Assembly: GCA_023474015.1 (NCBI GenBank) | Contig: JAMCYN010000149.1 | Span: forward strand, 1 to 14,010 | Direction of reading: 5' to 3' | DNA length: 14,010 bases | Source: Armatimonadota bacterium | GTDB lineage: Bacteria; Armatimonadota; UBA5829 | Shown here: piece after piece, positions 1 to 12,092 of the stretch | Position numbering within the stretch: position 1 is the stretch's first letter | Layout of the letters: each line of letters opens with the position of its first letter | Position numbers and translations under genes: made by a program | The notes under the pieces: model-generated | What the model saw: only the letters and a program-made list of their open reading frames with translations | The model's database searches: none | What the model was told of the DNA's origin: nothing

Positions 1-532
1 GGGCGTAGACATAGGAATTGTCCGCGCCGTAGTAGACCATGCCGTTATTGCCAATAAGCATCGCACCGCTGATCCCGGAGCTTCCGATGCTATAGGGCGA
101 CGACCAGTCCGGGTCACCGCTGCTCGCGAGCGAGTAGACGCGTCCACCCAGCGTGCCGAAGCATATTGATCCGTCGGCATCGACCGCCGCGGTTCCGCTA
201 ATTATGCTGTTTGCCCTCACCTGCCAGGCGAGGCTCCCGCCGCTTGTGATGGAGTAGAAATACTTGTCGTACGCGCCGAAATACACGCCGCCGTCCTCGC
301 CGACCACGGGCGACGCGCTGCAGGTCGTGCCGGTCTTGTAGGTCCAGGCAATCTTAGGGTCGCTTCCGGCCTCGAGTTGCGACCTGCCAGTGCGTTGAGG
401 GTCTCCCCTGAACATCGGAAACTGTGCGAGAGACTGAGCTGTCCCGGCCGATGCAAGCAAAATCAGAGCCGCGAGCGTAGCCGATGGATAGCCGCGTTTC
501 ACCGCATCTATGGTGTAGTTCGATATTTGCAT
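1..532 (-). CDS. Secreted PQQ-type beta-propeller protein (3' end beyond window)
   Basis: Reading leftward from the ATG at 532-530 the frame stays open for 177 codons to the window edge, so only the N-terminal part is present. Residues 1-35 form a long Sec signal peptide with hydrophobic core ATLAALILLASAGTAQS. FPMFRGDPQRTG follows, the typical entry of PQQ-like propeller proteins. At least three beta-propeller blades then follow, with PVVGEDGGVYFGAYDKYFYS, AAVDADGSICFGTLGGRVYS and AMLIGNNGMVYYGADNSYVYA as repeated outer strands. The role is probably extracellular or periplasmic. PQQ binding cannot be inferred, because many such repeats are purely structural. A GGGTGGGG stretch lies about 7 nt before the start, and a perfect sigma-54 promoter lies just upstream. 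A PEP-CTERM tail would fit that promoter but would be outside the window. Confidence 0.85.
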   Translation of the reverse strand, partial: MQISNYTIDAVKRGYPSATLAALILLASAGTAQSLAQFPMFRGDPQRTGRSQLEAGSDPKIAWTYKTGTTCSASPVVGEDGGVYFGAYDKYFYSITSGGSLAWQVRANSIISGTAAVDADGSICFGTLGGRVYSLASSGDPDWSSPYSIGSSGISGAMLIGNNGMVYYGADNSYVYA

Positions 533-574
533 TATTGATCCCCACCCTTGAATCTTGATGCCATTGTGAAGCAC

Positions 575-590
575 TGCAATAATCGTGCCA
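575..590 (-). promoter_or_regulatory. Sigma-54 (-24/-12) promoter of the PQQ-propeller gene
   Basis: On the minus strand this reads TGGCACGATTATTGCA, a complete match to the RpoN consensus TGGCACG-N4-TTGCA. The invariant GG and GC have correct spacing. The transcription start should fall near 565, giving a leader of about 30 nt before the ATG at 532. That is a natural distance. Confidence 0.85.
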
Positions 591-950
591 ATATGTAGTG
601 CTGCAGACCTAAAAGTTGACTAATTATTTATGGTAGAGGTGTTAGTTATTGATGAGTTGTTTCGTGCTACGACACAATGTGGATATATGGCAGAGGCAGT
701 GACAAATATTAGTGTTTTTATGATAGGCAGGTTTGGAACGTTGTGTCTGCTGGGTATTTTGCCTGGGCTGGTGAATGCAGCGGGCAAGCAGAACCCGCTA
801 CACTTACGATCAATAGGCAAACAGTCCGGCTCCGCAAACCGGCGTTAGAAAATGCGCCCGCCTCTCTCGGTAGAGGCCTCTGAGATCAGGCAGGAGTTGG
901 ACCCGTGTCAGTCGAAGATGCGGAAATCTGTCAAGTGGACAAAAGCAAAG

Positions 951-976
951 GGCTGAGAAGATGCAACTTCTCAGCC
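951..976 (-). terminator. Hairpin with leftward terminator shape
   Basis: GGCTGAGAAG (951-960) and CTTCTCAGCC (967-976) are perfect 10-bp inverted repeats around a 6-nt loop. On the minus strand the stem is followed by CTTTGCTTTTG, a moderately U-rich tail as in an intrinsic terminator. On the plus strand the tail is GC-rich. No minus-strand gene to its right is recognisable. Confidence 0.45.
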
Positions 977-1144
977 GCGGCCTCCAAGAACGGTCATGGG
1001 TAGGGATCGCTTTGTCGGCCAACAAATATTGTAGTCGGTGCCGGACTTCGTGTCAAGACACCGCGGTGGCCAAGAAGCTGTCCAAAGCCCACTTCGAGGC
1101 GCACTTGCGCCGAAGAAGCGACGTGCTCATTCTTGAAGAGTACC

Positions 1145-1212
1145 TGTCATCCTGAACTTGATTCAGGATCTGGTACCTGCGAAGAAGATGCTGAATCGAG
1201 TTCAGCATGACA
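1145..1212. repeat. REP-like palindromic intergenic repeat
   Basis: Two 26-nt arms at 1145-1170 and 1187-1212 are inverted copies of each other with three mismatches, and they flank a 16-nt loop. The arm starts TGTCATCCTGAAC and contains GATTCAGGATC. Intergenic palindromes of this kind are dispersed in many bacterial genomes and are often linked to REP-associated tyrosine transposases. The palindrome creates an MLNSIQHL-like pseudo-peptide on the minus strand that should not be annotated as protein. Confidence 0.75.
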
Positions 1213-1282
1213 GCAAGACTGAGCTGTTGCAACGAAGCGACGTGAAGGCTCGGAGGAGGTGGTGTATATCGCTTAGATAGCT

Positions 1283-1385
1283 GGACGGCTAAGCCCACGG
1301 TCACTGTGGGAAGTCCGCGCCCAGGTTGCATTTTAGCCCCTGGTTTGCGGCGGCGTCCCCCAGAAAGTTTGCGCGGCAGTGCCGC
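1283..1385 (+). promoter_or_regulatory. Structured leader upstream of the 1462 gene
   Basis: Three consecutive hairpins are visible. The first has outer stem GGAC/GTCC (1283-1286, 1313-1316) enclosing CCCACGG/CTGTGGG. The second is CCAGG/CCTGG (1321-1325, 1339-1343). The third is GCGGC/GCCGC (1373-1377, 1381-1385). They end about 65 nt before the ribosome binding site of the next gene. It matches no riboswitch class I know. It may be a regulatory leader or simply a GC-rich spacer. Confidence 0.3.
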
Positions 1386-1461
1386 CCGCGTTTGGGAGGC
1401 GTGTCTTATGAGATACGCGGCACGGAAAGAATACCTGTTTACCTCAAAAGGAGGCTATAAG

Positions 1462-2367
1462 ATGCGAAGGATTATACTTCTTGTCCTGGCACTGACCTTG
1501 GTAATGGCCGCGCCCTCAATGGCGGGCAGGATTACCAGCACAATGATTCAGCACTACAACCAGGTCTATCAGGCCTATCCGGCCTGCTTGGACCAAGTGG
1601 CGACCGACTCCAGTGTGGTCGACGGCTCTGCTTCCAGAGTCTTCAAGGGCTACCTTGGCCTCGGTAAGGACGTAATCAGCTCCGTGCCCGGAATCCTGGC
1701 GATTTGCCCGGGCGGAACGACCTGGCCGAACTTCATCGAGGCAGCACAGGCAGGCGTGCCCTACACGATCAAGAACACGACTTTCGTCAAAGAGACGCCT
1801 GAGTTTGTGCAGTGCAATGACGTGTTCCCACCTCACAGAGTGACCCAGCAGGGCACTCCCAACATCAGGCTCTGGTGGCCGTTGATGTATGAGGTTCCGT
1901 CGACCACGTTCACGCTGACCATTCTCTATGGAACGCCGACCTTGTTCGACGACGACGGCGACGGCCCCAACCCGCCCGCGTGGGTTCACGTGGAGCAGTG
2001 GGTGTGGCACGTTGACGCCGATCTGCCTCACCTGTCCCTGCTTCTCGAGCTCTTCCATGAGATCCCGTTTGGCAAGGACGAAGTGCCGTTGATCTCCGAC
2101 GAGCCGCTCTATTGGGCGCTCCAGGACAAGATCGCTGCCGCCTATGCCGCATTCCAGGCCGGCGACACGGCTACAGCCGCCGCGTACCTGACTGACTTCG
2201 AGTTGGAAGTCATGGATGCCTGCATCCCGACTTCGCCATGCAACCCGAATCCGACAGGCCCCGGCACCGGCATTGCGAACACCGAGGAAAACCCGGCCTG
2301 CTGCAAGCTGCTTGTGGACGTGGAGTACATTCTCCAGAACACCGGCATCGGCATGCCCGGCAAGTAA
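1462..2367 (+). CDS. Exported protein of unknown family
   Basis: This 301-aa protein starts at the ATG preceded by AGGAGG (1449-1454) with 7-nt spacing. An in-frame ATG at 1409 is possible but would put 18 residues before a normal signal peptide. Residues 1-22 (MRRIILLVLALTLVMAAPSMA) are a classical Sec signal. The mature part begins GRITSTMIQHYNQVYQAYP and is rich in Trp, Pro and Asp, with an acidic loop DDDGDGPNPPAW and several Cys, including a C-terminal CC pair. Around residues 217-256 a helical stretch ALQDKIAAAYAAFQAGDTAT is loosely reminiscent of FIMAH-type C-terminal domains (K-rich helix, AGD turn, then L..F...V), but this is weak. I do not recognise the family. It appears monocistronic, with a structured leader and a following 10-bp hairpin. 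Confidence 0.85.
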   Translation: MRRIILLVLALTLVMAAPSMAGRITSTMIQHYNQVYQAYPACLDQVATDSSVVDGSASRVFKGYLGLGKDVISSVPGILAICPGGTTWPNFIEAAQAGVPYTIKNTTFVKETPEFVQCNDVFPPHRVTQQGTPNIRLWWPLMYEVPSTTFTLTILYGTPTLFDDDGDGPNPPAWVHVEQWVWHVDADLPHLSLLLELFHEIPFGKDEVPLISDEPLYWALQDKIAAAYAAFQAGDTATAAAYLTDFELEVMDACIPTSPCNPNPTGPGTGIANTEENPACCKLLVDVEYILQNTGIGMPGK

Positions 2368-2380
2368 GAGCCTGCACTAG

Positions 2381-2410
2381 AAGGTCCTGGTCTTCAACGG
2401 CCAGGACCTT
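2381..2410 (+). terminator. Hairpin after the 1462 gene
   Basis: AAGGTCCTGG (2381-2390) and CCAGGACCTT (2401-2410) are perfect 10-bp arms around a 10-nt loop, beginning 13 nt after the stop codon. The tail TATACAAAT has no strong U-run, so it may be a weak terminator or an mRNA 3'-end stabiliser. Confidence 0.6.
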
Positions 2411-2520
2411 ATACAAATCAGAACCAATCAAATACATACTAATCGCTGAATTACTTAAAGCTAGAGCTGACACCGAGGGGCTCAGAGGACTGAAAGGTTA
2501 TTGAGTCAGGACGGTTGCGG

Positions 2521-3198
2521 ATGAGGAGAATGAACGTGAACGTCAAAACCAATCTACTCGTTCTATGCGGTATTGTCTCGATGGGCACAGCTTGCGGGGC
2601 TGATACCCCCAAGCAAAAAACATTGCACTACGAGCTGAAAGTCAAGTCCGCGAGTTTCGGCGACATGGGCTCCAGGAAGATGTGGATAAAGGGTGACAAG
2701 ATGCGCTGGGAAGCCAAGACGGACCGCTTCCCCTTGTGTCTCGTGAAAAACAAGCAGGGGGTGTTCCTGATTCACCCGTGGAACAAGTATGCGGCGAAGT
2801 ATCCCGATGGTTCTTCTCGCGGCAATCCCAGTGTGCTGTTTCCCGGGCCCACCGGCCCAGTCCCCAGCTTCCTGGCGAAAGTCAAGGCAACAAAGCACGG
2901 AACCCAGAAAGTGGCGAAAGAGCTGTGCAATGTTTATACCTACACAGATCCGGTCACCCGGCATCAAGCTAAGATGTGGGTGGGCGTAAAATCGGGAAAA
3001 CCCGTGCAACTCCTGCTAAAGGGTGAGCGCGGAAAAGCGGACACTATCACCGCTGCGTATACCAAGTTCGAACTGGGCGCCAAGGCGCCTGACTCACTCT
3101 TCGAACTTCCAAAGGGCTACGCAATCAGGCCCATGCCGGCTCAGAAGCTTACGTCTAAAGCGACAGCTGAGAAGCCGAAGACTAGGAAATCGGGTTAG
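2521..3198 (+). CDS. LolA-like exported protein (possible lipoprotein)
   Basis: The product is about 225 aa. Start codons compete: TTG 2515, ATG 2521 and ATG 2530. I chose 2521 because AGGA about 9 nt upstream fits better, while AGGAG sits too close to 2530. The N-terminus is basic, followed by LLVLCGIVSMGTAC. Cys25 could be lipidated, though Gly at -3 makes a poor lipobox. The body looks like the LolA/DUF4412 fold: WIKGDKMRWE, then LVKNKQGVFLIHPWNKYAAKYP, and a C-terminal KAPDSLFELPKGY signature typical of outer-membrane lipoprotein-sorting-like proteins. These families bind hydrophobic ligands in the periplasm or outer membrane, and no specific ligand can be inferred. The tail after about residue 205 is Lys/Thr/Ala-rich and probably disordered. 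A hairpin overlaps the stop codon. Confidence 0.8.
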   Translation: MRRMNVNVKTNLLVLCGIVSMGTACGADTPKQKTLHYELKVKSASFGDMGSRKMWIKGDKMRWEAKTDRFPLCLVKNKQGVFLIHPWNKYAAKYPDGSSRGNPSVLFPGPTGPVPSFLAKVKATKHGTQKVAKELCNVYTYTDPVTRHQAKMWVGVKSGKPVQLLLKGERGKADTITAAYTKFELGAKAPDSLFELPKGYAIRPMPAQKLTSKATAEKPKTRKSG

Positions 3199-3207
3199 AG
3201 CCCGATT
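3188..3207 (+). other. Small hairpin spanning the stop codon
   Basis: AATCGGG (3188-3194) and CCCGATT (3201-3207) are perfect 7-bp arms. The loop contains the TAG stop of the LolA-like gene. It lies just before the larger fold at 3214-3293. Confidence 0.4.
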
Positions 3208-3213
3208 ATCATA

Positions 3214-3293
3214 GACGCTCGGATCGGCGCGCTCGAGCATCGGTTCAAGCCACACGGCCCGAACCTCGCGACAAACGCGCCGATTTGGGCGTC
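3214..3293 (+). ncRNA. RNA-like structure with 18-bp stem downstream of the LolA-like gene
   Basis: GACGCTCGGATCGGCGCG (3214-3231) pairs with CGCGCCGATTTGGGCGTC (3276-3293) over all 18 positions if the plus strand is transcribed. Fifteen pairs are Watson-Crick and three are G-U wobbles. On the minus strand those three would be A-C mismatches, so the fold favours a plus-strand RNA. Inside lie GGTTC/GAACC (3242-3246, 3261-3265) and GCC/GGC around an ACAC loop (3249-3258). It could be a 3'-UTR element, a terminator or a small RNA. The class is unknown. Confidence 0.4.
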
Positions 3294-3301
3294 TTGCACA
3301 A

Positions 3302-3336
3302 GAGTGTTGAGTTTTAAGTTTTGAGTGTTGAGTGAA
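3302..3336. repeat. Degenerate heptamer tandem array (5 copies)
   Basis: The sequence divides exactly into GAGTGTT, GAGTTTT, AAGTTTT, GAGTGTT and GAGTGAA. It lies in the spacer before the multihaem gene. Similar 7-nt-period arrays occur at 8997-9031 and, less clearly, at 8134-8154. Confidence 0.6.
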
Positions 3337-3378
3337 GGGAAGCGTGGGTTGTGAGTTGGGGAATGCATGCTCTAGGTT

Positions 3379-3431
3379 GCTTCGGACCGCGAAGCGAAGC
3401 GGAGCTGCCGAAGCCGGGACCGATAGGTCCC
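3379..3431. repeat. Structured dispersed repeat, copy A
   Basis: A GCTTCGG/CCGAAGC stem encloses a GC-rich inner hairpin and is followed by GGGACC-GATA-GGTCCC (3416-3431). Copy B at 12102-12154 has the same architecture and the same core, including CGGAGCTGCCGAAGCCG. Its second hairpin is GCGACC-GCA-GGTCGC, so one base pair has changed on both sides. Confidence 0.65.
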
Positions 3432-3485
3432 GAGTCCCTTCCGGCTTTCCACTATCCCTTGCTACCTCGAAGGGGGCACATGGGC

Positions 3486-4904
3486 ATGAAGCACATTCTG
3501 ATAATAATCGCGGCGATCACCGCCGCAACGACAACCTCGCACACCGCGAAACTTCCCGCGAAGGCGAAATCCCTGGTCATTCTTTATACATCGTCGGCCA
3601 GGGGCCAAATCCGCACTTGCAACTGTACGAAATTCCGGTTCGGCGGCTATGGGCGCGAGTTCACGCTGGTGAAATCGGTCCGAGCAAGCAGCCCCGACGT
3701 TGTGTTGATCGAGGGAGGCGATCTGACCGGCGGGAGCGGCTTCCAGGATATGTTAAAGACCGATGTCGCGGCGAAAGCTCTCAAGCTGATAGGTTACGGC
3801 GCTGTCGTGCCCGGAGACGAAGACATCCGCCCGGCGGCCGCGCAAGCCATGAAGCGGCTCAAGGCGGGATCGGTCCCGATTGTGTGCGCAAACCTGCACG
3901 CCGTTGGCGACCCCAAACCCATGTTTCCGTCATATGTAGTCATCGAGACGAAGAACCATCTCAAAGTGGGCGTGGTGGGGGTCATCGATAAATCACTCGC
4001 CGGAAGCCTGCTCGAGAAGGGGTCGGGGCTGACCGTAGACGATCCTCTTCCACGGCTGAAATCCGTAATACCCGTCGTCCGCGCGAAGGCAAGCATGGTC
4101 GTGGTGATATTCCACGGTACTCTCACCGGGGCGGAGAAGCTCGCGGCGCTCAAGGGTATCGACCTGATCCTGTGCACGCATCGCGGCGACCGCGACATAG
4201 CGTTTCCCGATAAGACCAAGGACTCGAACGAGGTCACGCTGCCGGTTGAAAAGCGCGGAAGCTTGGTCTTGGTGAAGTCGGGGACGGTCTCGAATTGGAG
4301 CCTGGGCAAGCTGGATATCTCGCTCACGCCAGGGCGCAGGATCGGCGAAGTGAAGAGCACCTTGCTTTACCTCGACCGCCGCTACCCCGAGGACCCCGCG
4401 ATGGTGAATGTCTACGAAGACTACAGCGAAAAAGTGACCACCGCCGTTCTCGCCGCGTCGAAGCAGTTCAAGAAGGAATCGGAAACGTATCTGCTCAAGC
4501 GTGGGCTGAACCCGGATGATATGCGAAAGCGGCTGCGGAAAACTCCTTACGCCACGGCGGAAAAGTGCAAAAACTGCCACGTCGATATCTACGAGAGCTG
4601 GTCGAAAACCAGCCACGCAAGCTCCATTGCCAGCCTGCAAAAGACCAAGCAGGAATTCGACCCCGAGTGCATCAGTTGCCATGCGACCGGTGTGCTTGCG
4701 CGCGACGGTTTCACGAATTTTAAGGAGACTCCCGAACTCGCGAACGTCCAGTGCGAGACCTGTCACGGTCCCGGCCTTGAGCATTCCAAGTTGCCGTCAA
4801 CGGATTACGGCAAGGTCGAGGAGCAGACCTGCCGCGCGTGTCACAACGACGAGCGTAATCCTGAGTTCGACTTCGATGCCGCTTGGCTGAAGATAAAGCA
4901 TTAG
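3486..4904 (+). CDS. Exported 5'-nucleotidase-like protein with four haem-c motifs (cytochrome c554-like)
   Basis: The product is 472 aa. ATG 3486 is chosen because AGGGGG (3471-3476) is 9 nt away. ATG 3480 would leave only 3 nt. Residues 1-21 are a Sec signal. Residues about 30-300 resemble the UshA/5'-nucleotidase metallophosphatase fold (VILYTSSARG, EGGDLTG, LILCTHRGD). Metal-ligand motifs are degraded: the usual D-x-H is SAR at 37-39 and GNHE is replaced by GDED at 110-113. A CNC pair at 45-47 resembles the C-G-C of cytochrome-linked relatives. The C-terminal part carries CKNCH (361), CISCH (395), CETCH (423) and CRACH (449), four haem-c sites as in cytochrome c554-type domains. It is probably a periplasmic electron-transfer protein whose nucleotidase-like domain is non-catalytic. 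Cytochrome maturation genes are not in this window. Confidence 0.88.
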   Translation: MKHILIIIAAITAATTTSHTAKLPAKAKSLVILYTSSARGQIRTCNCTKFRFGGYGREFTLVKSVRASSPDVVLIEGGDLTGGSGFQDMLKTDVAAKALKLIGYGAVVPGDEDIRPAAAQAMKRLKAGSVPIVCANLHAVGDPKPMFPSYVVIETKNHLKVGVVGVIDKSLAGSLLEKGSGLTVDDPLPRLKSVIPVVRAKASMVVVIFHGTLTGAEKLAALKGIDLILCTHRGDRDIAFPDKTKDSNEVTLPVEKRGSLVLVKSGTVSNWSLGKLDISLTPGRRIGEVKSTLLYLDRRYPEDPAMVNVYEDYSEKVTTAVLAASKQFKKESETYLLKRGLNPDDMRKRLRKTPYATAEKCKNCHVDIYESWSKTSHASSIASLQKTKQEFDPECISCHATGVLARDGFTNFKETPELANVQCETCHGPGLEHSKLPSTDYGKVEEQTCRACHNDERNPEFDFDAAWLKIKH

Positions 4905-4940
4905 GGGGCACTTCGACGGGATATTCATCAAATGTATGAT

Positions 4941-4992
4941 GGTCCGGGATTTGCAATCCCGGACCCCTCTTTGCGGGTTTGTAACGCGCAAA
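4941..4992. repeat. Paired hairpins (REP-like), possible terminator
   Basis: GGTCCGGGATT (4941-4951) and AATCCCGGACC (4955-4965) form a perfect 11-bp stem with a TGC loop. A second hairpin follows, TTTGCG/CGCAAA (4970-4975, 4987-4992). The pair lies 36 nt after the stop of the multihaem gene. It could terminate that transcript, and the double-palindrome form also resembles dispersed intergenic repeats of other bacteria. Confidence 0.6.
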
Positions 4993-5186
4993 CATGCGTC
5001 TATCCGAAGAGCCAGACCTCCCAAGCCTACGCCCCTTTCATTCCGCATTGCCGAAGCCTACCGCATTCAAGTCGGTCGCCGGCGTGTCAGCCAAAAAGGA
5101 CTTCTCCCCGTTCCCAGCGAATACTATTGTGCGTTCGGCTGCCTCAAGAGAGGCCGCCATCAAAACCAAATTGGGAGGTAGGCACG

Positions 5187-6083
5187 ATGGGGCTTGTTTG
5201 GCTGGGAATTATACTGTTTATTGTTTCGTTCGTATTGAAGCGATTTCACACGGAAACGGGGGACAAGATCAATCTTGCTCCCTGGGCTTGGACCGCTCGG
5301 ATTGTCGCGATGCTGATGATTGTTGCCGGGCTGCTGTCGGCGTCCATCGTCATCGTTCCAGCGGGCAACAGGGGCGTGCTCCTGAGGTTCGGCGCTGTTC
5401 AGGGCGTGATGTCTGAGGGAATACACCTGATCCTGCCGTATATGAATGATGTCGAGCAGATGGAGGTCCGCACGCAGAAGGAGGGCAGCCAGGCCACGGC
5501 GGCATCTAAGGACCTGCAGATAGTAACCACCTCGCTCGCGCTCAACTTCCACATCGAGCCCACGAGAGTTGGCGATCTCTTCAAGAGCGTCGGCATCGAC
5601 TACAGGAGCCGGATCATCGACCCGGCGGTCCAGGAATCCATCAAGATGGTCACGGCCAGATACACCGCCGAGGAACTGATCAAGAACCGCGCGGCGGTGA
5701 AGGCCGAAGTCGAGCTCGACATCACCAAGCGCCTGAATGCTTATGACATAGTTGTCGAGCCTGCCGGGCTTTCAATCACAAACTTCAACTTCTCCGGGGA
5801 GTTCAACGCCGCAATCGAGGCGAAGCAAGTCGCGCAACAGGAAGCGGAGAAGCAGAAGTATATTCTCCAAAAGGCCGAGCTTGAGCGGCAGACCGAGATC
5901 ACCAAGGCAAAAGGCGCATCCGAGGCCGCCAGGCTCAATGCCCAGGCCCTTCAGGCGCAGGGTGGCTCAAAGGTGCTCGCGCGCGAATGGATAGAGAAGT
6001 GGGACGGCCACGTACCCACCGTCTCCAGTTCCGGCGGCGGCGTAATCATCGACATCAATTCGCTGCTGAAGACGGCGCAGTAG
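5187..6083 (+). CDS. Prohibitin/SPFH-family membrane protein
   Basis: The product is 298 aa, starting at the ATG with GGGAGG (5173-5178) 8 nt upstream. Two N-terminal hydrophobic segments lie at about 3-17 and 33-58. The SPFH domain starts at IVPAGNRGVLLRFGAVQGVM and continues through GIHLILPYMNDVEQMEVRTQ, DLQIVTTSLALNFHIEP, RSRIIDPAVQESIKMVTARY and YDIVVEPAGLSITNFNF, all characteristic of prohibitins. The C-terminal third is a coiled coil rich in Glu, Lys, Gln and Ala (AKQVAQQEAEKQKYILQKAE), followed by WIEKWDGHVPTV as in bacterial prohibitin homologues. Length matches the family. SPFH proteins oligomerise at membranes and scaffold or protect membrane protein complexes. The substrate is unknown. 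The next gene starts 65 bp downstream on the same strand. Confidence 0.93.
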   Translation: MGLVWLGIILFIVSFVLKRFHTETGDKINLAPWAWTARIVAMLMIVAGLLSASIVIVPAGNRGVLLRFGAVQGVMSEGIHLILPYMNDVEQMEVRTQKEGSQATAASKDLQIVTTSLALNFHIEPTRVGDLFKSVGIDYRSRIIDPAVQESIKMVTARYTAEELIKNRAAVKAEVELDITKRLNAYDIVVEPAGLSITNFNFSGEFNAAIEAKQVAQQEAEKQKYILQKAELERQTEITKAKGASEAARLNAQALQAQGGSKVLAREWIEKWDGHVPTVSSSGGGVIIDINSLLKTAQ

Positions 6084-6148
6084 TTGACCCTAGCCTGCAG
6101 CCATTGTATAATCAGACCGATCATTGGAGAAAGGCAGGTTTTGGGGAA

Positions 6149-7237
6149 ATGAAGATTTGCTCTCGCTATATTATCGTGTTTGTGGCGGTCCTTTGCTTGA
6201 TTGGGACGGCCGTTCTTGCAGCCGATCAGGTGATCAACACCAAGTCGGGACTTGTGGAGAAAGTGAAGGGCGGCCTCATTGACTGGGGCACGGAAATGTA
6301 CTACGCAACCGGCGAGGGCGCCATGCCCCCGGCTTCGGAAGAGCCCAACAGGGCGAAGGCTTTGCTTAAGGCCAAGGGCTACGCGAGAATGCAGGCAGTC
6401 GCGAACTTGCTGATGGCGGTCGAAGGCACGCCGATCTCCTACGAGGCCTACGGCAAGGACTATATGGCCCAGAGCGAGGTTCTCAAGCAGAAAATCGAAG
6501 GCTACGTCAAGAACGTCGAGATAATAAAGATGGAGCAGGCCAAGGTAGAGGGGCAAACGGTAGTCAGGATCACCGTCGGCACCCACATGTATGGCAATGC
6601 TACCCCCGGCTCCGCGCTGCTCACCTCGCTTTCCGATGAGCTTGGAAGCCCCGAAGGTTATATGGCTGAGTCCACCGCAAAATCAGAAGCCTCTCTGGAG
6701 AAGGCCGTGCAATCGACGGTGAATGTTGAACTAAAGCCGGAAGCCAAACCGAAGCCGAAAGTTGAGCCCAAGGTCGAACCCAAGGTTGAACCAAAGCCAG
6801 TGACCATTGCAAAAGCCGTAGAAAAACTTGAAGTGAAAGCTGAGGAAGTCAAGGTCGATGCCAAGCCGGAGGCCAGCTACACCTCGGTGATCATAGATAC
6901 CACCGGCTACAAGGTGTCCCGCGCGATGAGTCCGAAGATCAGGCGCAAAGACGGCTCCGAGGTCTGGGGCACGATTAAGATGGACCCGGATGTCGTTCAG
7001 GACCACGGCCCGGTGGCATATACGCGCAACCTGGCTGAGGCAAAGAAATGCCCCCGCGCCGGTTCGAACCCTCTGACGCTGACTGCCGCGGGCCGCGCGG
7101 GTGGGGCGCGAATGTGCGACGTGGTACTTTCCGATGACGATGTTACCAAGCTGACGGCGGCGAACGAGTCCTCGAAACCGCCGTTTCTCGATCAGATGGC
7201 GGTAGTTTTCGTTGTCGATCCGATTAAGCTGTTCTAA
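6149..7237 (+). CDS. LPP20-like exported protein with VEPK-repeat linker
   Basis: The product is 362 aa. ATG 6149 is chosen because a signal peptide starts there (MKICSRYIIVFVAVLCLIGT, ending about AVLA). The ribosome binding site GGGGA is unusually close, so initiation may be weak or coupled. Residues about 40-150 match the LPP20/lipoprotein-20 pattern (AKALLKAKGYARMQAVANLL, then YVKNVEIIKMEQ), although no lipobox Cys is present. A linker holds VEPK tandem units within a Lys/Pro/Glu-rich region. The C-terminal domain (about 245-362; SYTSVIIDTTGYKVSRAMSP, EVWGTIKM, NPLTLTAAG, FLDQMAVVFVVD) resembles the one that often follows LPP20 domains in envelope proteins. The function is unknown and it is probably periplasmic. 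It sits between the SPFH gene (65 bp) and the next gene (41 bp), suggesting one operon. Confidence 0.82.
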   Translation: MKICSRYIIVFVAVLCLIGTAVLAADQVINTKSGLVEKVKGGLIDWGTEMYYATGEGAMPPASEEPNRAKALLKAKGYARMQAVANLLMAVEGTPISYEAYGKDYMAQSEVLKQKIEGYVKNVEIIKMEQAKVEGQTVVRITVGTHMYGNATPGSALLTSLSDELGSPEGYMAESTAKSEASLEKAVQSTVNVELKPEAKPKPKVEPKVEPKVEPKPVTIAKAVEKLEVKAEEVKVDAKPEASYTSVIIDTTGYKVSRAMSPKIRRKDGSEVWGTIKMDPDVVQDHGPVAYTRNLAEAKKCPRAGSNPLTLTAAGRAGGARMCDVVLSDDDVTKLTAANESSKPPFLDQMAVVFVVDPIKLF

Positions 7238-7278
7238 GCTGGCGAGAATTGATTGCACTGCATTAGTGGAGAATTGCT

Positions 7279-8100
7279 ATGTTCCTAAGGCGAATATTCA
7301 AAGGTATGCCCGACCTGGGCCCCTGGGTCTCGGTGGCGGAGTTGGTTGCGGCGCTCGCGACCGTTATCGCGACTTTGATGGCGCTCAAGGTGGTCCCGAC
7401 CCCATTTAAGTCGCCCACCGGGACTGTCTCGGGCATAGTGACGGATGTGAAAACCGGTCAAGCGATTCCCGAGGCGACAGTGCAGATAGTCGATGCCGCC
7501 AGCAAGGTGATAACCGCCGAATCGATCCCTGATGCTAAAGGGAGTTGGAAAGAGATGGTGAAGCCTGGGGAGTACACGGTCAAGGTGGTGTGCGATGGCT
7601 ACCATCCGGCCCAGAAGAGTGTCACGGTCGCCCAGGACAAGTGCCGCGTCGTTCGGCTGGAGATAGAGAAAGCGCAGCCCACGCGTGTTGATAGCTCAAG
7701 CGCCGCATCAGCCTCCTCCGGTTCGTCGCCGCGGAATGTGATAGTGGTGGGCGGTCCGTCGCGGGTTGCGTCATCCGGGGTTGCTCCGTCCGCCGCGCCA
7801 GCGAAAAGCGCTGTGGCTCCGGCAAGCGGCTCGGCATCCAGCGACAACGTGCGGATGGCTCGCGCTGAGTGCGCCAAGGGCAAGAAGTTTGCCAACCAAG
7901 GCAAGCTCACCGATGCAATAAACGCCTTCACAAACGCGGTGAATCTCGATCCAACCGACGGCGAATACTACGCGTGTATTATCAAAGTTGACCTCGAGAT
8001 GGAAAACCTGGCGGACGCCAAGGAATGGGCTGCCGATGGCAAGAAGAATGCCACCAAAAATGTCGAAAAACTCAACCAGGCCGCGGCGCTGCTGCAGTAA
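7279..8100 (+). CDS. Membrane-anchored carboxypeptidase-regulatory-like and TPR protein
   Basis: The product is 273 aa, with TGGAG 7 nt before the ATG. Residues 17-39 form one transmembrane segment (VSVAELVAALATVIATLMAL). Next comes a carboxypeptidase-regulatory-like beta-sandwich at about 48-125 (GTVSGIVTDVKTGQAIPEAT through KPGEYTVKVVCDGYHPAQKS). A low-complexity Ser/Ala/Pro/Val linker covers about 130-190. A C-terminal TPR-like pair starts at ARAECAKGKKFANQGKLTDA and includes AINAFTNAVNLDPTDGEYY. The topology suggests a membrane-tethered scaffold facing the periplasm. It is the third gene of the 5187-8100 cluster and is followed by a 13-bp inverted-repeat terminator candidate. No enzyme activity is indicated. 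Confidence 0.85.
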   Translation: MFLRRIFKGMPDLGPWVSVAELVAALATVIATLMALKVVPTPFKSPTGTVSGIVTDVKTGQAIPEATVQIVDAASKVITAESIPDAKGSWKEMVKPGEYTVKVVCDGYHPAQKSVTVAQDKCRVVRLEIEKAQPTRVDSSSAASASSGSSPRNVIVVGGPSRVASSGVAPSAAPAKSAVAPASGSASSDNVRMARAECAKGKKFANQGKLTDAINAFTNAVNLDPTDGEYYACIIKVDLEMENLADAKEWAADGKKNATKNVEKLNQAAALLQ

Positions 8101-8112
8101 AGGGAAAGCAAG

Positions 8113-8167
8113 TAGGCAATAGAAGAAAGCCAATGACTCACGACCCACAACTTCCTTCTATTGCCTA
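8113..8167. terminator. Bidirectional stem-loop between convergent genes
   Basis: TAGGCAATAGAAG (8113-8125) and CTTCTATTGCCTA (8155-8167) are perfect 13-bp arms around a 29-nt loop. The element fills the gap between the plus-strand TPR gene and the minus-strand PEP-CTERM gene. The loop contains a GACTCAC GACCCAC AACTTCC heptamer-like run. Confidence 0.6.
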
Positions 8168-8172
8168 GGCCT

Positions 8173-8694
8173 TCAGCTTCTTCTTTTCCTAAGTAGCCCC
8201 GCCGCGAATCCCAGCCCGGCGATTAGCGCGGTCAGGCTTCCCGGCTCGGGGACTGTGATTATCGGCCCGCCGTCCGTCGGCATTTCGTACGGGTCCGCCA
8301 GATTATTGAACATAGCGGACCAGGTCTGGTTTGTCGGCGTCGCGCTAAACTCCGCCACAAAGCCGGTCTTTGACTGCCCCGCCGGCAGGTCGGTCATGGT
8401 GGATGTCCAGGTAACGAACTGAGGCACGCTCGCGTCCGCCGCCCATCCGTCAGGGCTGAAGACGTTAGTCACATCGACACCCTCGTCGATCCCTATTGCG
8501 AAGAGCCACACCGTGTAGTTCGGGCTGGAACTCGTGTTAGAGACCGTGTAACTCCACGCCTCGGGCCCCGCCATACCCAATTGACTTCCCACAACTTGTA
8601 CGCCATATAGTTGTCCGCTTAGTGACTGGCATAACGCCGGCGTCATGCCTGGCGCGACCAGGGACACCAAGACGGTGATTATCAACGCTCGCAT
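8173..8694 (-). CDS. PEP-CTERM sorting-domain protein
   Basis: The product is 173 aa, starting with ATG at 8694-8692 and AAGGAGG (8704-8710 on the plus strand) at 9-nt spacing. Residues 1-23 form a signal peptide (MRALIITVLVSLVAPGMTPA). The mature part is a beta-rich, Asn/Thr/Ser-rich domain with no recognised family beyond this class. The C-terminal 26 residues are a textbook PEP-CTERM signal: VPEPGS at about 148, a hydrophobic helix LTALIAGLGFAAGLL, then RKRRS. Such proteins are processed by exosortase and routed to the surface or exopolysaccharide matrix. The exosortase must be encoded elsewhere. A perfect sigma-54 promoter lies about 120 bp upstream. Confidence 0.92.
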   Translation of the reverse strand: MRALIITVLVSLVAPGMTPALCQSLSGQLYGVQVVGSQLGMAGPEAWSYTVSNTSSSPNYTVWLFAIGIDEGVDVTNVFSPDGWAADASVPQFVTWTSTMTDLPAGQSKTGFVAEFSATPTNQTWSAMFNNLADPYEMPTDGGPIITVPEPGSLTALIAGLGFAAGLLRKRRS

Positions 8695-8782
8695 TTACTC
8701 TGCCCTCCTTGTGCTGAGCTGTACTGCGGGAACAGAGTCGGCTGTAACCGCATTTGTGCTGGCTGATCAATATGCAAACTCA

Positions 8783-8798
8783 TCTGTCACATGACAGA
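8783..8798. promoter_or_regulatory. Palindromic candidate operator
   Basis: TCTGTCACATGACAGA is a perfect 7-bp inverted repeat with a 2-nt centre. It lies just downstream of the expected start site of the sigma-54 promoter for the PEP-CTERM gene and within the divergent spacer. The size and symmetry fit a dimeric DNA-binding protein. Confidence 0.4.
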
Positions 8799-8815
8799 CC
8801 TATATTGACACATGG

Positions 8816-8831
8816 TGCAAGATGCGTGCCA
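8816..8831 (-). promoter_or_regulatory. Sigma-54 (-24/-12) promoter of the PEP-CTERM gene
   Basis: On the minus strand this reads TGGCACGCATCTTGCA, a complete match to TGGCACG-N4-TTGCA. The expected start is near 8805, leaving a leader of about 110 nt before the ATG at 8694. Together with the identical-quality site at 575-590 it points to RpoN control of surface proteins. Confidence 0.87.
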
Positions 8832-8996
8832 GATTCCACCTGAGTTAGGTGTTTTCAGTGGGGGATATTATTGTTCAGCTTAAACCCAAAAAGCTCAATA
8901 AATATCATACATCAGGTTAGCCAAGCAGGCGAGCGGGTATACTCGGTTATGCCGGTTTGTGAGTTAACGGGTTAGTGCATCCTCGGTAATTCTGGA

Positions 8997-11960: not shown

Positions 11961-12010
11961 TCGCGCCTACTGCGCGGCACGCTTCGCGTGAAAACGAACG
12001 TATCAAATTT

Positions 12011-12092
12011 AGTCATTCCGAGCGAATGCGAGGAATCTGCTTTGAACCAGACGTATCTAAAAGCAGATTCCTCACTACGTTCGGAATGACTA
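12011..12092. repeat. REP-like palindromic intergenic repeat
   Basis: Arm 12011-12043 begins AGTCATTCCGAGCG and contains GAGGAATCTGCTTT. Arm 12061-12092 is its near-perfect inverted copy (AAAGCAGATTCCTCA, then GTTCGGAATGACT). It lies between two convergent genes. The GTCATTCCGAG...GAGGAATCT form is a widespread type of dispersed bacterial palindrome. Confidence 0.75.

What the first reader, a model, noticed from the sequence alone, without database searches (positions are those of the whole stretch)
575..8831. Two perfect sigma-54 promoters imply an RpoN regulon of surface proteins
TGGCACGATTATTGCA (575-590, minus) and TGGCACGCATCTTGCA (8816-8831, minus) both match TGGCACG-N4-TTGCA at every defined base. 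Both lie upstream of the only two minus-strand genes whose starts are visible: a secreted PQQ-propeller protein and a PEP-CTERM protein. Two exact 12-base matches in correct orientation and position are very unlikely by chance. PEP-CTERM/exosortase loci in other bacteria often carry the PrsK/PrsR two-component pair, PrsR being a sigma-54 activator. The inference is that both genes belong to one exosortase-linked, RpoN-controlled set, and that the truncated propeller protein may end in a PEP-CTERM tail.
Basis: partly seen in the sequence, partly recalled or inferred. Interest (0 to 1): 0.72.

Follow-up and report, generated by a model that had tools for sequence, protein, structure and literature searches.

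The report
Sigma-54 control of PEP-CTERM surface proteins
Two genes for secreted cell-surface proteins in an uncultured Armatimonadota bacterium each carry a textbook sigma-54 switch that is kept before the same genes in related species, which suggests that a small set of exported proteins is turned on together by a regulator unlike the one known from Proteobacteria.

Summary
Both sites exist exactly as stated. The window is Armatimonadota; its own genome is not held, so I tested 28 genomes of a relative's class. There the pattern occurs 174 times against 21 for the reversed pattern. Five genomes without rpoN over cut-off have none.

The window's PEP-CTERM gene has site-bearing relatives in 7 genomes, the truncated PQQ propeller in 6. 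Of 141 TTGCA sites, 68 precede a PEP-CTERM ORF, against 2 of 141 reversed and 5 of 1195 random positions.

Limits: only about 5-10% of PEP-CTERM genes carry a site, and no PrsR passes its cut-off.

New: (i) all 23 site-bearing genomes encode one activator type without a DNA-binding domain; in six it is the only activator over 60 bits. (ii) Sixteen genomes have a second RpoN, directly before the flgB operon in five. Conserved flagellar sites end TTGCT, conserved PEP-CTERM sites TTGCA. (iii) A direct repeat, AGCTCWRCCAT, lies upstream of some sites.

New variant of a known regulon; nothing shown experimentally.

The parts
575..590 (-). sigma-54 -24/-12 element TGGCACGATTATTGCA before the PQQ propeller gene; -11 base is A; expected transcription start about 564 (inferred from spacing)
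   Evidence: exact; relatives in 6 genomes keep a site
1..532 (-). secreted PQQ-type beta-propeller protein, cut by the window's left end; ATG at 532
   Evidence: PF13570 45.8 bits, under its cut-off of 133; PF13360 28.3 bits against 27.6; 39-46% identical over most of its 177 residues to 6 site-bearing relatives that all end in PEP-CTERM
533..558 (-). leader, GATTCAAGGGTRGGGATCAA type, conserved before the ATG in the propeller relatives; role unknown
628..642 (-). UAS-like repeat ACACCTCTACCATAA, 52 bases upstream of the site
   Evidence: score 17.0
646..660 (-). second UAS-like repeat ACAACTCATCAATAA, weaker
   Evidence: score 12.5
8816..8831 (-). sigma-54 -24/-12 element TGGCACGCATCTTGCA before the PEP-CTERM gene; -11 base is A; expected transcription start about 8805 (inferred from spacing)
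   Evidence: exact; all 12 defined bases invariant in the 5 sequences aligned; 7 relatives with a site
8868..8882 (-). UAS-like repeat TAAGCTGAACAATAA, 51 bases upstream of the site
   Evidence: score 16.8
8757..8792 (-). conserved leader block TGTGACAG...ATATTGATCAGCCAGCA, downstream of the promoter; role unknown
8173..8694 (-). PEP-CTERM surface protein, 173 aa, signal peptide at the N-terminus by eye
8179..8256 (-). PEP-CTERM sorting domain, residues 147-172
   Evidence: PF07589 25.3 bits against 20.7; TIGR02595 19.8 against 16

Best explanation
Both sites are working sigma-54 promoters of a small, conserved regulon of PEP-CTERM surface proteins. RpoN1, the paralogue present also in the genomes that have a single rpoN, holds RNA polymerase at TGGCACGN4TTGCA. 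A two-component system of a GAF-rich histidine kinase and a receiver-AAA+ activator without a DNA-binding domain (called EBP2 here) opens the complex when its unknown signal arrives. In the window's nearer relatives a separate DNA-binding factor may sit on upstream AGCTCWRCCAT repeats and give specificity. The exported proteins would then be sorted by exosortase. Shown by sequence: sites, their conservation, co-occurrence, EBP2 domain make-up, PEP-CTERM tails. Inferred: transcription, RpoN1 as the sigma factor used, EBP2 as the activator, the role of the repeats, and that the window's own genome carries these parts.
For: Exact sites. 174 sites against 21 reversed in 28 genomes; 0 sites in the five genomes (G010, G023-G026) with no rpoN over cut-off and no PF00158 match over 60 bits. 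EBP2 found in all 23 genomes with sites. 68 of 141 TTGCA sites precede a PEP-CTERM ORF against 2 of 141 reversed and 5 of 1195 random positions. Four PEP-CTERM families keep the site in 11, 8, 8 and 7 genomes, the last two counting the window. All 12 site bases are invariant in 5 aligned upstream regions. EBP2 has receiver, Sigma54_activat and AAA lid but no HTH in 3 of 3 scanned; in 23 of 23 the protein ends at most 13 residues past the alignment and keeps a GAFTGA or GSFTGA loop. In six genomes (G004, G006, G007, G008, G009, G011) EBP2 is the only PF00158 match over 60 bits.
Against: No transcription data. The window's own genome is not held. Only 3 of 67 PEP-CTERM genes carry an exact site and 8 of 67 with up to 2 mismatches, so most are controlled otherwise. 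73 of 141 TTGCA sites have no PEP-CTERM ORF by my test; some lie inside long ORFs and may be chance. G007 has 4 sites but no rpoN match; I take its genome for incomplete, untested. G023 has 2 exosortases and 14 PEP-CTERM matches but no rpoN, EBP2 or sites. Outside the class only 2 of 31 sites looked at precede a PEP-CTERM ORF. EBP2 is tied to these promoters by co-occurrence only. PF00158 also has weaker matches (37 bits or less) in the genomes, which I take for other AAA+ proteins, as all 14 control genomes ring too. Several genomes are close relatives (G012/G013; by their sites also G006/G007), so counts are not independent.
Confidence: 0.77

Rival explanations
1. A PrsK/PrsR system like that of Proteobacteria (Haft 2006) controls these genes.
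For: PEP-CTERM genes with sigma-54 motifs and NtrC-family response regulators.
Against: TIGR02915 over cut-off in 0 of 28 genomes; the best match (433.9 against 502.6) is EBP1 of G012, beside rpoN2 and flagellar genes. EBP2 scores 371.6 and its kinase 114 against 300 for PrsK, one protein each. EBP2 lacks an HTH. I did not search PrsK or PrsT genome-wide, nor Haft's motif 1.
Confidence: 0.05
2. The two sites are chance matches or sites of another factor.
For: Matches to a consensus alone prove nothing; 73 of 141 TTGCA sites have no PEP-CTERM target by my test.
Against: 8-fold excess over the reversed pattern, absence in the five genomes without rpoN over cut-off, conservation of all defined bases, similar distance to the start in relatives.
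Confidence: 0.05
3. The second sigma factor RpoN2 and the HTH-bearing activator EBP1 transcribe the PEP-CTERM genes too.
For: EBP1 is the closest match to PrsR and is found in the 16 genomes with two rpoN genes. RpoN2 lies beside flagellar genes in only 5 of them, so it may have other targets. Two of 32 TTGCT sites precede PEP-CTERM ORFs.
Against: Six genomes have TTGCA sites before PEP-CTERM genes but only EBP2 over 60 bits. Conserved flagellar-family sites have T at -11 in 14 of 14, sites of the four largest PEP-CTERM families A in 34 of 34.
Confidence: 0.08

Closest known systems
PEP-CTERM regulon of Proteobacteria with PrsK/PrsR/PrsT (Haft 2006, PMC1569441, passages read)
   Same: sigma-54 motif before PEP-CTERM genes, NtrC-family response regulator, exosortase (EpsH)
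   Different: Haft found the motif only in Proteobacteria, before 99 of 167 genes; here another phylum, a small minority of the PEP-CTERM genes, and a different two-component system whose activator has no HTH
RpoN1-dependent pepA of Aquincola tertiaricarbonis (PMC9850573, passages read)
   Same: a PEP-CTERM gene with a mapped -24/-12 promoter that needs one RpoN of several
   Different: Betaproteobacterium (recalled) with prsK and prsR; -12 element CTGCTT there
RpoN1 (nif) and RpoN2 (flagella) of Cereibacter sphaeroides (PMC11999139, passages read)
   Same: RpoN paralogues with separate regulons, discrimination reported at the -11 position, one regulon flagellar
   Different: the other regulon is PEP-CTERM, not nif; here discrimination is inferred from sequence only
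CtcC of Chlamydia (PMC7482065, passages read) and FlgR of Helicobacter pylori (recalled)
   Same: sigma-54 activators without a DNA-binding domain
   Different: other regulons; here paired with a GAF-rich kinase, and apparently fused to it in one genome (L293)

Membership tests
sigma-54 promoter | GG and GC elements with the -24/-12 spacing, consensus bases | tested here: met
   exact at both
sigma-54 promoter | rpoN in the organism | tested here: inconclusive
   own genome not held; over cut-off in 22 of 28 genomes of a relative's class
sigma-54 promoter | transcription start 11 bases past the -11 base, dependent on RpoN and an AAA+ activator | not testable with these tools
   needs RNA mapping and mutants
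PEP-CTERM/exosortase substrate | C-terminal PEP-CTERM domain over cut-off | tested here: met
   8173-8694 passes PF07589 and TIGR02595
PEP-CTERM/exosortase substrate | PEP-CTERM tail on the window's propeller | tested here: inconclusive
   gene cut by the window; 6 of 6 site-bearing relatives, all complete, have it
PEP-CTERM/exosortase substrate | exosortase in the organism | tested here: inconclusive
   own genome not held; 24 of 28 in the class
PrsK/PrsR regulon | PrsR (TIGR02915) over cut-off | tested here: not met
   0 of 28 genomes
PrsK/PrsR regulon | PrsK (TIGR02916) over cut-off | tested here: not met
   kinase beside EBP2 in G001 114 and kinase beside EBP1 in G012 84 against 300, two proteins; no genome-wide search
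PrsK/PrsR regulon | motif 1 upstream, PrsT | not tested
   no call made
HTH-less sigma-54 activator | AAA+ domain with GAFTGA-type loop and no DNA-binding domain | tested here: met
   HMM scan of 3, ends and loop of 23; in relatives, not in the window

The most novel reading that the evidence does not exclude
In this Armatimonadota class two sigma-54 paralogues divide cell-surface programmes through one base: RpoN2 with an HTH-bearing activator reads TTGCT (-11 T) for flagella, RpoN1 with an HTH-less activator reads TTGCA (-11 A) for PEP-CTERM proteins, and in the window's nearer relatives an unknown protein bound to AGCTCWRCCAT direct repeats replaces the activator's missing DNA-binding domain.
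Probability: 0.37. Interest if true: 0.78.

Novelty: new variant of a known kind. Interest (0 to 1): 0.62.

Why it matters
Sigma-54 control of PEP-CTERM genes was reported by Haft 2006 for Proteobacteria only. Finding it in Armatimonadota with another two-component system suggests separate recruitment or an old link with a swapped regulator. Five genomes with one RpoN and one HTH-less activator (G004, G006, G008, G009, G011) give an unusually simple sigma-54 circuit. The -11 split between two paralogues would test a rule that I know from one organism (Cereibacter). I found no paper on this in the held open-access library: Armatimonad with PEP-CTERM gave one paper, on LuxI/LuxR by its title; Armatimonadota with sigma-54 none; Armatimonadetes with RpoN none; PEP-CTERM with RpoN gave ten and PEP-CTERM with sigma-54 and exosortase three, none on Armatimonadota by title.

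Tried and rejected
Rfam over the window and 19 loci found no RNA family at the promoters or leaders; the four matches were three tRNAs and SRP RNA in L001.

The idea that sigma-54 controls PEP-CTERM genes in general was rejected by the reverse test (3 of 67 exact). The idea that flagella always go with RpoN2 was rejected: G006, G007 and G008 have flgC-fliI type operons but no second rpoN; G006 and G007 have no TTGCT site and G008 has one, inside a long ORF. The idea that RpoN2 always lies in the flagellar operon was rejected too: it does in 5 of 16 two-rpoN genomes (G012, G013, G014, G016, G017); in the other 11 it does not lie beside the flagellar structural genes in the stretches read, and in G003 an RpoN1-type gene lies 1.3 kb from a FliG-like gene. 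The idea that the link is phylum-wide was not supported (2 of 31 sites in 30 loci of other genomes).

Upstream k-mers in the genomes outside the close group gave nothing clear above the reversed control. The AGCTCWRCCAT matrix was trained on the same sequences that it then scores, so its counts (25 sense, 3 antisense, 1.8 in Markov controls at score 10 for 52 sites; 0 at 15 TTGCT sites; 1 at 89 sites of other genomes) are partly circular. The seed was seen by eye; with up to 2 mismatches it gave 20 sense, 3 reversed, 3 antisense at 51 sites. Scanned over 663 kb, 28 places reach score 13, a density not above chance, but a pair outside the training set (L269) lies before a one-mismatch site of a PEP-CTERM gene.

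My PEP-CTERM test is a regular expression; about 5 of the 67 genes do not look like PEP-CTERM proteins by eye. Names of flagellar genes other than FliG (PF01706) are my reading of the sequences, carried to other loci by tblastn, not HMM results.
Full report
The observation. Both 16-base sites are present at the stated places, on the minus strand, with every defined base matching. They lie before a PQQ-type propeller gene, cut by the window's left end, and before a 173-residue protein whose PEP-CTERM domain passes both the Pfam and the NCBIfam cut-offs. The window belongs to Armatimonadota: its Band 7 protein is 83% identical to a protein named from an Armatimonadota bacterium. No genome is held for the window, so everything about rpoN, exosortase and enrichment comes from relatives.

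The relatives. A scan with the Band 7 alignment gave 33 loci. The three most similar lie in genomes G001, G002 and G003; G002 is titled UBA5829. The search of the class of G001 covered 28 genomes. In these the pattern TGGCACGNNNNTTGCW occurs 174 times, against 21 for the pattern read backwards (my sums). RpoN (PF04552) is over cut-off in 22 of 28: 16 have two copies, 6 have one. Six have none over cut-off (G024 has a weak match with stops). Five of these six have no site at all; the sixth, G007, has 4 sites and is perhaps incomplete.

What follows the sites. I collected 171 of the 174 sites plus the window's two. Of 141 sites ending in TTGCA, 68 have a PEP-CTERM ORF starting from 60 bases before to 400 bases after the site's end; in the opposite orientation 2 of 141 do, and at random positions of the same loci 5 of 1195. 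Of 32 sites ending in TTGCT, 2 do. Clustering the downstream proteins gave four PEP-CTERM families with a site in 11, 8, 8 and 7 genomes, two of them containing the window's genes. The window's PEP-CTERM protein is 29-47% identical to its 7 site-bearing relatives, its propeller 39-46% to 6; all six propellers are complete and end in a PEP-CTERM tail. In five aligned upstream regions of the PEP-CTERM gene (four relatives and the window) all twelve defined bases of the site are invariant, together with stretches of the leader, while much of the rest differs.

How large the set is. The reverse test took 50 stretches around PEP-CTERM matches: 40 in list order, leaving out one near-copy, and 10 more picked from the same list. 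They were not chosen by sites, though I had the list of sites by then. Of 67 PEP-CTERM genes by my test, 3 have an exact site, 5 with up to one mismatch, 8 with up to two. Of 534 other genes the numbers are 0, 3 and 27 (Fisher p 0.0013, 0.0006, 0.045). So the link is real but covers a small share of PEP-CTERM genes. Exosortase is found in 24 of 28 genomes. G023 has exosortase and PEP-CTERM genes without rpoN, activator or sites, so the sigma-54 layer is an addition to the sorting system, not a needed part of it.

The regulator. No genome has a PrsR over its cut-off. Two main activator types are seen. EBP1 has receiver, AAA+ and a Fis-type HTH (one scanned, L214) and is found in the 16 genomes with two rpoN genes. 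EBP2 has receiver, AAA+ and AAA lid but no HTH in 3 of 3 scanned. It is found in all 23 genomes with sites, ends at most 13 residues past the alignment in all 23, and keeps a GAFTGA-type loop. A kinase similar to the GAF-rich kinase of G001 lies beside it or in one frame with it in 21 of 23: in G021 the stretch ends there, and in G018 none was found. Repeated GAF domains were checked by Pfam in two of these kinases. In G004, G006, G007, G008, G009 and G011 EBP2 is the only PF00158 match over 60 bits; weaker ones (37 bits or less) I take for other AAA+ proteins. If sigma-54 promoters need an AAA+ activator, as established, EBP2 is the only good candidate found in those six. G015, G016, G017 and G003 have one further match over 60 bits that is neither EBP1 nor EBP2. 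The five genomes without sites have none over 60. In G012, G011, G013 and G014 a receiver-PilZ type protein, possibly a c-di-GMP reader, lies next to EBP2.

Two sigma factors and the -11 base. RpoN1 and RpoN2 are 31-36% identical and differ in the helix-turn-helix (HESTVSRATANK against HEST[VI]CRA) and in the RpoN box (ARRTVVKYRE against ARRTVAKYR[EDA]) in the 15 rows aligned, 13 of them distinct. RpoN2 lies directly before flgB in G012, G013, G014, G016 and G017; in the other 11 two-rpoN genomes it lies elsewhere, in 8 of them on one stretch with EBP1. The four largest PEP-CTERM families have A at -11 in 34 of 34 sites. Sites before flgB/flgC (6), a CheX-like gene (4), flhB (2) and flgE (2) have T in 14 of 14 (Fisher 2e-12, but orthologs are not independent). 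This includes flgB in G020, G022 and G028, where RpoN2 is not beside it. A smaller mixed PEP-CTERM cluster has one T among five, and 2 of 32 T sites precede PEP-CTERM ORFs, so the rule is not absolute. T sites make up 29 of 109 in two-rpoN genomes and 3 of 58 in one-rpoN genomes (p 0.0007). In Cereibacter sphaeroides the -11 position is reported to separate RpoN1 from RpoN2 promoters (PMC11999139, passages). That TTGCA belongs to RpoN1 here is inference.

A possible helper site. In the window and 7 of 11 nearer genomes a directional repeat, AGCTCWRCCAT (score 9 or more), lies upstream of TTGCA sites, often near -53 and -90 or near -66 from the site. The window has one strong copy before each site. 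At score 10 it has 0 matches at 15 TTGCT sites and 1 at 89 sites of other genomes. Since EBP2 has no HTH, another protein may bind there. The matrix is trained on the same data; the one outside case is L269.

Beyond the class. RpoN is over cut-off in 105 of 151 Armatimonadota genomes sampled, and the pattern occurs in 113 of 151, but the reversed control is common there too, and only 2 of 31 sites looked at outside the class precede a PEP-CTERM ORF.

What is known. [quoted passage not shown] Aquincola pepA is an experimental case (passages). Francke 2011 argues that sigma-54 controls the bacterial exterior in general (passages), and a 2025 survey of sigma-54 regulons has no mention of Armatimonad, PEP-CTERM or exosortase in its main text (term counts and passages). 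The finding is therefore a new variant: same logic, new phylum, other regulator.

Noticed in passing
L293:3-2873 (G002): The kinase part and the HTH-less activator EBP2 lie in one open reading frame of 956 residues, apparently a kinase-activator fusion.
   Followed up: no
L261:1988-3043, L262:10848-11960, L298:5858-6913, L299:5572-6693: A receiver-PilZ type protein lies next to EBP2 in four genomes (PilZ by Pfam in L261 only), hinting at a c-di-GMP link.
   Followed up: partly
L036, L037, L079, L194 around the site: One PEP-CTERM family keeps long blocks on both sides of the promoter (GGCTTGTGCTC, GGTGCACC, GAAAGGGG and the like) that could pair; no Rfam match.
   Followed up: partly
window 3486-4904 (+): A fusion of an UshA-like part with a multiheme cytochrome part (NF041198 223 bits, under its cut-off of 275; Cytochrome_C554).
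   Followed up: no
window 1144-1212 and 12010-12090: Short inverted repeats of the type CTGAACTTGATTCAGGAT and ATTCCGAGCGAATGCGAGGAATCTGC, intergenic, by eye.
   Followed up: no
L034 (G004), L186 (G017): TTGCA-type sites also lie before a gene that looks by eye like a rhomboid-type membrane protease in two genomes.
   Followed up: no
G023: A genome with two exosortases and 14 PEP-CTERM matches but no rpoN, good activator or site.
   Followed up: partly
L343 (G003:C110): A FliG-like gene lies 1.3 kb from an RpoN1-type gene, on one contig with EBP1, while the flgB-fliI type genes lie elsewhere (L362) without an exact site.
   Followed up: no
L001:11012-11610: Three tRNA genes and the large SRP RNA follow the Band 7 gene in the closest relative.
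   Followed up: no
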